Source: Cryphonectria parasitica EP155
Taxonomy: Eukaryota > Ascomycota > Sordariomycetes > Diaporthales > Cryphonectriaceae
Assembly: GCF_011745365.1 (NCBI RefSeq)
Contig: NW_024468913.1
Coordinates: forward strand, 310,001 to 374,000
Direction of reading: 5' to 3'
DNA length: 64,000 nucleotides
The translations under genes and the position numbers were made by a program. Every line of letters starts with the position of its first letter. Within the stretch, counting starts at the first letter, position 1. This document shows, piece after piece, positions 59,627 to 63,508 of this stretch. Below the pieces are notes generated by a model. That model worked only from the letters and a program-made list of their open reading frames with translations. It was not told the DNA's origin and did not search any database.

Positions 59627-62600
59627 TCACAGTGTAAGTGGCCCCCCAACCCTCCTCCCATCCATGTCCAACTCAACGCCATCCGCCCCCATCTTAGCAG
59701 ACAAAACTGCCATGCCAGCACCACTCTCCTGCTCAATCCCTTCATCCCCACCAGCCCCAGCCCCCTGCGATACCAGATGCTCGCTGTGCGTGATGACAAC
59801 AATATATGCGACCCTCGCATCCGCCATATAGTCACACCACCTGACCACAGCCGCCTGCCCTGCAGCATCGAGGCTGTCAAACACCTCATCGACGAGCATG
59901 TAGTGGGCACGGTGCGGAGACCGCGTGTGGCCGACGTGCAGCAGCGCAAAGAAGAGGGCGAGGTCGATACGCTTGCGCTCGCCGCCGCTTCGCTTGCCGT
60001 AGGACAGGCGGTTGTCGACAGAGAGGGAGCTGTCGAGGGCGACTGCTCCAGCAGCGTTGTTCTGGTTCTGCCCAGCACCCTCCTTTTCAGTCTCGTGATT
60101 GTCCTCGTCATCGCCGACGAAGAGAGAGCGCAGCATTCCCGTTGTCAGTGCAGTGGCATGCCGGCTATTCTCGAATAGGATCGTGAGGATATGCGTGATG
60201 GCGGTGTTGAGTTCTTTCAGGGATTTCTCCAAAATGAATTCCCTGAAAGTGTAGAACGACGTGGTGGCTGAAGAGGATGACGATGACGAGGAAACGCGCC
60301 GGGCCTTTTGCGCGAGCGCTGAGGCCCAAAAGTCGAGGAGCTCGCGGTCTGCGGCCAGGCTTGCCCGTTCCTTTGCGAGGGTGGCGCATTCTGTCTTGAG
60401 GTTCTCCCTTGCTGCTGTCTCCGTGTCGATGACCTCTTCAATCATGGCTAGTTTTTCACAGCTGGCCCGCGTGGCGGCCTGGAGTTCTCCGAGCCGGGCC
60501 TGCTTGGCTGCGTGAAGTTTTCTCTGGCCCTGTAGGTCCGCTAATGTCCTAAGGGCTGCATTCAGCTGTGCGGAATATGCCTTGGCCTTGTCTGCAGAGA
60601 CCTTCTCGAGGCTATCCCGTACGTCCTGTTCCGACATATCCCTCTCAGTAGCTATCTTTTGTGTGATATGCTGCTCTGCCCCAAGGTCTTCAAGACGGGA
60701 TAGTTGCCTTCGCTGCTCTGCGATTCTCTCGCCGACGTCTTCCAAAGATACCTTGTGGGCATACAGCACTTCTTGTTTCCTTCTGGCCCTTGAATCTTCC
60801 TCTTCCTGCGCGTGCGCACCACCAGTCAAATGGCCAAGCACAGCCAAGACTCGTTGCAAGAATATTGACGATACTTTCGCAGAGCACGCCGCAATACGTT
60901 GCCACAGCATCCGAGGCGACCAACGTGGTAGAGAGGATGATTGTAAGCCGGCGTCTATGGACTGAAAAATGTGATGCATCCGTGAGAGATACGTCAGTAC
61001 CCAGCGGAGCATCGCACCGGTGTGTTTTTCTGGTCTCTCGGAATCCTGTGTATCTACCACAGGCTTGTTCGAGAACAGCGACGAGTACTTGTCCTCTAGG
61101 TCTGCAATATGCTGATGCACAGCAAGCCGCCTGCTCTGAACTGCCGACGTGGCTTCGTCAAAGGCACCTCGAATATCTGCAAGCTTAGTGTAGTGCAGGA
61201 GAGTCTCCACCTGTTGTTCTGTGGTCGACATCTGCTCGTCCAGCCGCTTAGACTGAACTGAAGCATCGTCATCGCCCTTGGTGCCGAGTCCGATCGTTTC
61301 CTCGACGTCTTTGAGGGCCTCCTGCCTCTCCTGGTCGATGTGCGCGAGCTCTGTTTGTAGTTTGTCCTTCGTCTGGACCAGCTGCATGATGCGCCCCTGC
61401 ACGTGGTCCATCGTCTGCTCCAGTCCAGCCACTCTAGACGCCAGGTGAGCCTCATCCTCCCCCATCCTGCGCAAAAGGCGCCTGGTAGTGGTACCGCAGC
61501 GGTCTAGAATTTCCAGCCCGAGTACGGACATGATCAGGTCTCTGCGCTGTGAGGGTGTTGAGCTCAGGAAGCTCGTGGCACTCTCATGGCCCAGCACGAT
61601 AGTCCTAACAAATGTGGTGTAGTTGATGCCCAGCAACTCGTCGATGGCCGCCTGCGTGCTCCGGACATCCGACTTCTCGAACTCGGGCAGCACTTTTCCG
61701 TCCCGCTCGACGATGATCCTGTTGCCGTATTCCTTGTGCTTGCGGAACCTGGTGATGGCGTAGCCGTTGTCAAAGACCATGCGCACGCTGCAGTCTTTTT
61801 TGACCTTGTCGTTGACCACATCGCCGGCACCGATTCCGGCGCGCAGGCATTTTCCAAACTGGCACCAAACGATGGCCTCGACGAGGGTGCTCTTTCCAGA
61901 GCCGTTCTCGCCCACGAGGAATGTGACGCCTCGTTTGACGTCTGTACCGAAGTCGAGGTGGATTGTGGATTGTACTCCGAGGAAATTTGTGATGCTTAGC
62001 GAGCGAGGTTGGGCATTGAAGACAGTTGGAGAGCGGAAGGTCGGACTTGGTGACGATGGCCTCACTCGAGCGGCGGTGGCTGGGTCAGTTACATCCACAT
62101 TTCGAGGTGGGGTTATGTCCTTATAATCAAGAGCCTGGGGCTCGCCACCTCCAAGTGTCTGGCTCTCCTCTTCGGCTTGTTCGCTAGCTGCAGCCTCTAA
62201 TAGTCTTTGGCCTATCTGGACGAGCAACTCTCGAGACTTCTCAAGCGATTGGTCCAGATCGAGGGCATCCACATATCTTGTCAGTTGCTCGCGAAGATCA
62301 AGCTGCTCCGGCTGAGGCGGCTCATGAGCCTGTAATGCCTGACCAAACGTGTCTATCGAGGTTCGTTCGTTGGCTTGATCCATATCGTTCTCCAACGCAA
62401 GGTTTGGCTTTTGAATCGAGGCATCACTGGCAGGCGTTGACGCACCCAGCCCATGTGCCACGACCGTGCCCTGAAATCGGGGCGCGATCGGACTCCAGCT
62501 TCTGATGCCGCGAGCCCCGAGAGTGATAAGCTTGTCTCTCGCAGCGGCATACTTGAATCGTGTGAGATCACCTAACAACATGACGTGTCTGCTACGGATC

Positions 62601-63508
62601 AGCTCCGGGTCAGCCTCACCACCCAGAACCTCCTCCACGCCGACAGTCACGTATCCTACGGCATGAGGATTCACAATGAGCTCATGATCCAGTGTCTGAG
62701 GGTCCAGCAGGACGACGCCCCGCTGCTCATCCCACAGATCCGCCCAGGTCAACTGCAGCGGCGATCCCACGTATGTAACGCTCCCACGCAGGCGGGCTGC
62801 CTCCTCCACGACCTCGTCTGACCGCCCACCACGGGAGTTGAATGCCGACCACGGCTGCTGCAAGATGGACTGGTGCGAGTGGAAATGTCCTGTGAACGTC
62901 CTGGCCAGGCGAGAGAAGTAGCCTGGCCCTATCAGCCCGTGGTACGCAACAGACCCAGTCCTACGACTGGTGGCATCCGAGCTGGGCCTGACGACATGGC
63001 GCTGGGTGATGGCTCTGTGAACAGCCAGATGGGCAAAAGCAACTGTCTCGGCAGCGTCCTCGTCACGCAAGGCGGCGACAGCGTCAGTCAGCTCTGACTG
63101 GTCTTCGCGAAATGGGAGCGTCAAGACGCGGCGGCCATCCCACACGTGCTGACCGACATCCCAATGCAGCTGCACCGCAGGCGCGGCCAGGCGCAGCGCG
63201 TCGAGGGCGGTGGTGGCGCGCAGATTGTCGCGGCGGTAGGCTAGGTCATGGTTGCCCAGCACAACGTGCACGTGGGGCACCTGTGCTTCGTGCACGAGCG
63301 AGCCCAGGAAGCGATAACAGGCCGAGAGGACGTGTGTGGGCTGGCTGGTGCGGGTGGTGAGCAGGTCGCCACAGACCACAACGCGGTGAACACGGCGCTG
63401 AGCTGCCACAGACGCGATCCACTCTGCAGTCTTGGTGATGCGATCTAGGTCCTGGTGCTTGAAGTGGATGTCGGCCAAGAGCAGCCATTTGAGACCGACT
63501 GAGCGCAT
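59627..63508 (-). CDS. Fused SbcD/Mre11-type nuclease and SbcC/Rad50-type ATPase in one chain
   Basis: Mre11-Rad50 (SbcD-SbcC) complexes open and trim DNA ends; normally nuclease and ATPase are separate proteins. This intronless gene codes 1293 residues containing both. Residues 1-330 are a metallophosphoesterase with all five motifs: D13 and H15 (LADIHFKH), D48 (VVCGDLL), N86 and H87 (LGNHD), H160 or H164, and GHFHSH at 207-212. Residues about 505-660 are the N-terminal ATPase lobe with Walker A LVGENGSGKST (about 530). A coiled coil of about 430 residues follows, without a CxxC zinc hook. The C-terminal lobe has signature YGKRSGGERKRIDLALFFAL (about 1168), Walker B YMLVDEVFDSLD (about 1202) and H-loop VVITHSEHL. 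An in-frame stop upstream (about 63600) supports the start. No mitochondrial presequence is visible. It looks functional. Confidence 0.9.
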   Translation of the reverse strand: MRSVGLKWLLLADIHFKHQDLDRITKTAEWIASVAAQRRVHRVVVCGDLLTTRTSQPTHVLSACYRFLGSLVHEAQVPHVHVVLGNHDLAYRRDNLRATTALDALRLAAPAVQLHWDVGQHVWDGRRVLTLPFREDQSELTDAVAALRDEDAAETVAFAHLAVHRAITQRHVVRPSSDATSRRTGSVAYHGLIGPGYFSRLARTFTGHFHSHQSILQQPWSAFNSRGGRSDEVVEEAARLRGSVTYVGSPLQLTWADLWDEQRGVVLLDPQTLDHELIVNPHAVGYVTVGVEEVLGGEADPELIRSRHVMLLGDLTRFKYAAARDKLITLGARGIRSWSPIAPRFQGTVVAHGLGASTPASDASIQKPNLALENDMDQANERTSIDTFGQALQAHEPPQPEQLDLREQLTRYVDALDLDQSLEKSRELLVQIGQRLLEAAASEQAEEESQTLGGGEPQALDYKDITPPRNVDVTDPATAARVRPSSPSPTFRSPTVFNAQPRSLSITNFLGVQSTIHLDFGTDVKRGVTFLVGENGSGKSTLVEAIVWCQFGKCLRAGIGAGDVVNDKVKKDCSVRMVFDNGYAITRFRKHKEYGNRIIVERDGKVLPEFEKSDVRSTQAAIDELLGINYTTFVRTIVLGHESATSFLSSTPSQRRDLIMSVLGLEILDRCGTTTRRLLRRMGEDEAHLASRVAGLEQTMDHVQGRIMQLVQTKDKLQTELAHIDQERQEALKDVEETIGLGTKGDDDASVQSKRLDEQMSTTEQQVETLLHYTKLADIRGAFDEATSAVQSRRLAVHQHIADLEDKYSSLFSNKPVVDTQDSERPEKHTGAMLRWVLTYLSRMHHIFQSIDAGLQSSSLPRWSPRMLWQRIAACSAKVSSIFLQRVLAVLGHLTGGAHAQEEEDSRARRKQEVLYAHKVSLEDVGERIAEQRRQLSRLEDLGAEQHITQKIATERDMSEQDVRDSLEKVSADKAKAYSAQLNAALRTLADLQGQRKLHAAKQARLGELQAATRASCEKLAMIEEVIDTETAARENLKTECATLAKERASLAADRELLDFWASALAQKARRVSSSSSSSSATTSFYTFREFILEKSLKELNTAITHILTILFENSRHATALTTGMLRSLFVGDDEDNHETEKEGAGQNQNNAAGAVALDSSLSVDNRLSYGKRSGGERKRIDLALFFALLHVGHTRSPHRAHYMLVDEVFDSLDAAGQAAVVRWCDYMADARVAYIVVITHSEHLVSQGAGAGGDEGIEQESGAGMAVLSAKMGADGVELDMDGRRVGGPLTL

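What the first reader, a model, noticed from the sequence alone, without database searches (positions are those of the whole stretch)
59627..63508. Single-chain Mre11-Rad50 (SbcD-SbcC) fusion in a fungal genome
Seen in sequence: one uninterrupted frame carries a metallophosphoesterase with every metal-ligand motif (D13, H15, D48, N86, GHFHSH 207-212). It is followed by an ABC ATPase with Walker A, signature, Walker B, D-loop and H-loop. Established: Mre11 and Rad50 are separate subunits in eukaryotes and in bacterial SbcD/SbcC, held together by a flexible contact. A covalent fusion fixes the 1:1 ratio and suggests a self-contained DNA-end nuclease distinct from nuclear MRN. Possible roles are organelle DNA maintenance, defence against foreign DNA, or capture from a virus or plasmid. 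Whether homologues are already recorded under hypothetical names cannot be judged here.
Basis: partly seen in the sequence, partly recalled or inferred. Interest (0 to 1): 0.93.

Follow-up and report, generated by a model that had tools for sequence, protein, structure and literature searches.

The report
Fungal one-piece DNA-end cutting enzyme
This fungal gene joins in one protein a DNA-cutting enzyme and its ATP-driven clamp, normally two proteins; similar fusions were already known from viruses, bacteria and other eukaryotes, but this fungal branch looks virus-like and lacks the zinc clasp that usually links two such clamps.

Summary
Window 59627-63508 (-) is one 1293-codon frame: an Mre11/SbcD-type nuclease followed by a Rad50/SbcC-type ATPase, with metal ligands and ATPase motifs in place. 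It is not an assembly artefact: of 160 family proteins aligned (window plus 159 of the 160 listed), 151 span both domains and 150 keep all eight residues required. The genome, apparently Cryphonectria parasitica EP155, also has separate MRE11 and RAD50 genes, so this is an extra system. The kind is not new: such fusions in viruses, bacteria, plasmids and non-fungal eukaryotes were described in 2011 (PMC3175470), and fungal copies sit in databases as hypothetical or 'nuclease SbcCD subunit C' proteins. Not seen described in what I searched: a large fungal family (named members Sordariomycetes and Phyllosticta) whose nearest non-fungal matches are phage-type SbcD/SbcC proteins (cellular kinship not excluded), without a zinc hook (CxxC in the coil in 1 of 160, against 65 of 65 viral ORFs and 11 of 12 references), and probably exchanged between fungal classes. 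Most likely an ATP-gated end/hairpin nuclease; activity and role untested.

The parts
59627..63508 (-). Complete fused CDS, 1293 aa: N-terminal Mre11/SbcD-type nuclease, linker, C-terminal Rad50/SbcC-type ATPase
62708..63508 (-). Metallophosphoesterase (residues about 1-267); ligands D13, H15, D48, N86, H87, H160, H208, H210
62489..62707 (-). Capping-like domain (about residues 268-340), conserved in the family; boundary by analogy with the P0063 model
   Evidence: model 4..316 against SbcD 0..318
62180..62320 (-). Possible HLH (Rad50-binding) segment, residues about 397-443, inside a variable linker
   Evidence: conserved LDL..YV..L.L..SL..R..L..xGxRL pattern; helices 380-390 and 401-418 in the P0063 model; assignment is inference by position
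61439..62008 (-). ATPase lobe I (residues about 501-690): Walker A 533-541, Q-loop position H641
60317..61513 (-). Coiled-coil arms (residues 666-813 and 910-1064, with breaks) and an apex (helices 832-856 and 866-894) without CxxC
   Evidence: window model m8ffbf76d387d (fragment residue + 493); Cys counts
59759..60049 (-). ATPase lobe II (about residues 1154-1250): signature 1174-1178, Walker B 1207-1208, D-loop to 1214, H-loop H1241

Best explanation
It is a single-copy, intact fungal gene for a one-chain SbcCD/Mre11-Rad50-type nuclease: a fungal branch of the known kind 'Mre11/Rad50 fusion protein', probably acquired in an ancestor of these fungi from a phage-like or other viral gp47/gp46-type source, and since inherited, duplicated and sometimes exchanged between fungal lineages. 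Likely mechanism (inferred from anatomy): two chains pair through their ATPase heads on ATP binding; the linker and the HLH-like segment hold each nuclease near the root of the coil, with a fixed 1:1 ratio; ATP hydrolysis opens the clamp so that the metal site can cut a DNA end or hairpin. A short coil without a zinc hook would make tethering of two DNAs by hook pairing unlikely and favour cutting over bridging. Shown: domains, residues, family, missing CxxC, separate MRE11 and RAD50 genes. Inferred: origin, dimer, intrachain contact, activity, substrate.
Confidence: 0.72

Rival explanations
1. The fungal family arose by fusion of cellular (bacterial SbcDC or eukaryotic MRE11-RAD50) genes and diverged fast, so that the phage affinity is a long-branch effect.
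For: fungi+cellular grouping not rejected, p-AU 0.218 and 0.443; very long fungal stem branch (1.68 and 1.84).
Against: Phage-type profiles score far higher (against 6 and 33); PF04152 hits in this genome only at the separate MRE11; 99/97 support for fungi with phages.
Confidence: 0.2
2. It is a defence factor against foreign DNA (linear plasmids, transposon or viral intermediates), perhaps working with the NLR-like gene upstream.
For: Exchange between lineages; NLR-like gene (NPHP3_N, ankyrin repeats) about 1 kb upstream on the same strand; matches of the ATPase part to defence ATPases such as mad3 and LmuB.
Against: 56 NPHP3_N matches in this genome, so one neighbour noticed afterwards is weak; conservation of the pair in other fungi could not be tested; the PADLOC matches listed lie in the ATPase part.
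Confidence: 0.3
3. It is a mitochondrial DNA-maintenance nuclease.
For: 11 of 116 members are annotated with more than 25 residues before D13, e.g. P0015.
Against: 105 of 116 have 4-21 residues before D13; the window frame has no ATG between the upstream stop and the start used.
Confidence: 0.08
4. It is a decaying selfish-element gene without function.
For: Truncated or partial relatives are recorded, e.g. in Fusarium (a search limited to short proteins).
Against: Intact here; required residues kept in 150 of 160.
Confidence: 0.07

Closest known systems
Mre11/Rad50 fusion proteins (Mimivirus R555 and twelve others; PMC3175470)
   Same: Nuclease-then-ATPase order in one chain; canonical pair also present in the genome; outside the canonical groups in my best trees
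   Different: No fungus in that list; of those proteins I could fetch only the Deferribacter megaplasmid frame, which matches the fungal profile weakly (32 bits, profile positions 422-913) and has a CNTC motif
Phage gp47/gp46-type proteins (T4, Herelleviridae; phrog_100/phrog_77)
   Same: Best profile and tree relatives
   Different: Separate, mostly adjacent genes in the loci fetched: 0 ORFs with both domains in 80 viral loci and 1 archaeal locus; shorter; CxxC kept
E. coli SbcCD
   Different: Two proteins, hook CPLC, Q-loop glutamine
Eukaryotic MRE11-RAD50(-NBS1)
   Same: Same superfamilies and fold
   Different: Separate genes elsewhere in this genome; RAD50 has CHLC hook; PF04152 not found in the fusion

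Membership tests
Mre11/Rad50 fusion proteins (PMC3175470) | Mre11-like then Rad50-like domain in one frame | tested here: met
Mre11/Rad50 fusion proteins (PMC3175470) | Exists beside a canonical pair in the same genome (true of the cellular cases there except Deferribacter) | tested here: met
Mre11/Rad50 fusion proteins (PMC3175470) | Placement outside the canonical clades | tested here: inconclusive
   best tree yes (99/97), alternative not rejected (p-AU 0.218); few canonical rows (6 bacterial, 1 archaeal)
Mre11/Rad50 fusion proteins (PMC3175470) | Common descent with the published moss, diatom, slime-mould or Mimivirus fusions | not testable with these tools
   their sequences were not retrieved; only fold matches to viral proteins
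Mre11/SbcD nucleases | Metal ligands and catalytic His (D13 H15 D48 N86 H87 H160 H208 H210) | tested here: met
   154-159 of 160 each
Mre11/SbcD nucleases | Capping domain | tested here: met
   homologue P0063 model aligned over 4..316 to SbcD nuclease and capping domain; not modelled for the window protein itself
Mre11/SbcD nucleases | HLH Rad50-binding segment | tested here: inconclusive
   conserved helical motif at a fitting place; contact not modelled
Canonical Rad50/SbcC | Walker A, signature, Walker B, D-loop, H-loop | tested here: met
Canonical Rad50/SbcC | Q-loop glutamine | tested here: not met
   H641 here; H 113, N 18, Q 13, P 9, R 3, S 3 of 160; Q in 8 of 8 cellular references
Canonical Rad50/SbcC | CxxC zinc hook at the coil apex | tested here: not met
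   none in the window; 1 of 160 has CxxC in the coil region; no apex Cys at all in 85 of 160
Nuclear MRN complex | Being the genome's own MRE11 and RAD50 genes | tested here: not met
   separate genes

The most novel reading that the evidence does not exclude
A virus-derived, hook-less, one-chain SbcCD-type nuclease has become a mobile DNA-defence factor of filamentous fungi, carried across fungal classes by horizontal transfer and in Cryphonectria paired with an NLR-type receptor gene; it would show that a Rad50-family nuclease can work without zinc-hook tethering.
Probability: 0.12. Interest if true: 0.78.

Novelty: new variant of a known kind. Interest (0 to 1): 0.5.

Why it matters
It offers a single-gene, naturally fused and hook-less Mre11-Rad50-type enzyme, with relatives in tractable fungi such as Trichoderma. 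That makes directly testable whether the zinc hook is needed for nuclease function, and what a second, viral-type end nuclease does beside nuclear MRN. The recorded protein of this very gene lacks four stretches that relatives conserve, so database copies may mislead.

Tried and rejected
Missed stop or two merged genes: rejected. Four stretches missing from record P0001 (residues 767-821, 881-921, 970-995, 1246-1260; my reading: predicted introns): probably annotation errors, since the 14 close relatives compared align through them (mean aligned fraction 0.98, 0.91, 1.00, 0.74); no RNA was seen. Mitochondrial presequence: little room. Second copy in the genome: none by protein; a 45-base DNA match on C10 gave no tblastn match with 160 family proteins (repeated with a positive control that worked). 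Deferribacter fusion as query found no viral relative. PADLOC and NCBIfam gave matches below or without a cut-off, mostly generic ATPases. Literature: searches. One search found no paper; the others gave lists, several of them capped (30 of 390, 15 of 194, 15 of 10,619, 10 of 17), of which I saw titles and starts of abstracts; no listed title or abstract start treats fungal members. PMC3175470: outline and parts 1-3 of 5 read; PMC12906663: passages only. Absence from this open-licence library is not absence in print. Not seen: hits beyond the 120 listed (227; 250), so other fungal classes are not excluded.

Full report
OBSERVATION. The stated interval is exactly one minus-strand ORF of 1293 codons. 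Pfam finds Metallophos at 9-149 and AAA_23/SMC_N between 503 and 1248, each above its cut-off. The genome search finds the protein once, in a 1330-aa open frame without stops. The window lies on a contig of 4,337,670 bases, the length of the contig behind P0001, named Cryphonectria parasitica EP155 by its source; P0001 equals the window protein except for four deletions. I read these as predicted introns; the 14 near relatives compared align through them, so the continuous frame is the better gene model.

FAMILY. Searches gave 227 and 250 significant proteins, 120 listed each time, 160 distinct in all. The named ones I could place are Sordariomycetes (Diaporthales, Hypocreales, Sordariales, Xylariales in the wide sense, Magnaporthales, Ophiostomatales, Glomerellales) and Phyllosticta (Dothideomycetes); these ranks are recalled, and many rows carry no name. 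I aligned the window with 159 of the 160 (P0001, the same gene, left out): 151 have a residue at all ten positions checked across both domains and 150 carry the eight residues required. Source names include 'hypothetical protein', 'P-loop containing nucleoside triphosphate hydrolase protein', 'nuclease SbcCD subunit C' and 'gp46 recombination endonuclease subunit'. A nuclease-only search, which by its length limit cannot list full-length fusions, gave 37 hits: 35 at 43-62% identity to the window's nuclease part, many of them named as fungal, short or partial, and two distant ones, P0196 (1.1e-11) and P0197 (1.5e-6), from unnamed contigs, which match phage family phrog_100.

SEPARATE COMPLEX. 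MRE11 (PF04152, 143 bits) and RAD50 (113.5 bits to AAA_23; exon 2 matches Chaetomium Rad50 at 8e-114; CHLC hook) lie elsewhere in the genome, so the fusion is not the ordinary complex.

ZINC HOOK AND Q-LOOP. CxxC occurs in the coil region of 1 of 160 family members. It is present mid-protein in 66 of 66 relatives' ATPase ORFs of at least 540 aa, 65 from viral contigs and 1 archaeal, 64 distinct sequences, and in 11 of 12 references, the exception being a Deinococcus plasmid protein; the archaeal protein is in both sets. 85 of 160 family members have no apex cysteine, 55 have one, 20 two or more. A cysteine near the ATPase head (671) is common (108 of 160) but is no CxxC. The window model puts two helices at the apex (832-856, 866-894) with low to moderate confidence. 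At the Q-loop position the family has H 113, N 18, Q 13, P 9, R 3, S 3 of 160; 8 of 8 cellular references have Q; of 57 phage rows 44 have S and 6 Q.

ORIGIN. PHROG profiles for phage SbcC-like and SbcD-like subunits match far better than the cellular profiles tried. A concatenated tree of 39 rows (11 fungal, 21 phage of 57 available, 6 bacterial, 1 archaeal) supports fungi with phages at 99/97; holding fungi with cells is not rejected, p-AU 0.218. An ATPase tree of 40 rows, with the genome's own RAD50 as a very long row, gives 95/90 and p-AU 0.443. BFVD fold matches include long phage and giant-virus proteins; that they are fusions I infer from length and alignment span. In the fungal tree (47 rows, quick method, SH-aLRT only) the three Phyllosticta rows are sister to one Discula copy inside a clade whose other named rows are Diaporthales (100), and Discula has a second copy in another clade. 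Cross-class transfer is the simplest reading; old paralogy with many losses is the other.

CONTEXT. Upstream, same strand, about 1 kb away, lies an NLR-like gene: NPHP3_N NTPase and ankyrin repeats. The genome has 56 NPHP3_N matches at exon level, so this may be chance. On the other side lie an MFS transporter and a carboxylesterase. GC of the CDS is 0.58 against 0.53 for the window, not extreme.

KNOWN. Yoshida, Claverie and Ogata 2011 (PMC3175470; outline and parts 1-3 of 5 read) described thirteen Mre11/Rad50 fusions: Mimivirus, a Bacillus phage, five bacteria (some on plasmids), a moss, two slime moulds, a diatom and two prasinophytes; they noted that the cells, except Deferribacter, keep canonical genes, and proposed a viral source. 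The kind is therefore known; the fungal hook-less branch appears to be a new variant of it.

Noticed in passing
L012:509-5268 (G000:C5:374509-379268, - strand): NLR-like gene in several ORFs (NPHP3_N NTPase, ankyrin repeats) directly upstream of the fusion gene on the same strand.
   Followed up: partly
public record P0001: The database protein of this gene lacks four in-frame stretches that relatives conserve, probably wrongly predicted introns.
   Followed up: yes
P0161-P0195: Short or partial relatives, many from Fusarium, found by a search limited to short proteins: decay or mis-annotation of this gene in some lineages.
   Followed up: partly
residue 641 (window 61586-61588): Q-loop glutamine replaced by His in most of the family (113 of 160); phage rows mostly have Ser there (44 of 57).
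   Followed up: partly
P0045, P0104: Family members whose records also carry a cytochrome P450 (P0045) or FAS1 name (P0104), possibly merged gene models.
   Followed up: no
window 54607-56372 (-) and 58165-58959 (+): Carboxylesterase in two ORFs and an MFS transporter piece, ordinary neighbours.
   Followed up: partly
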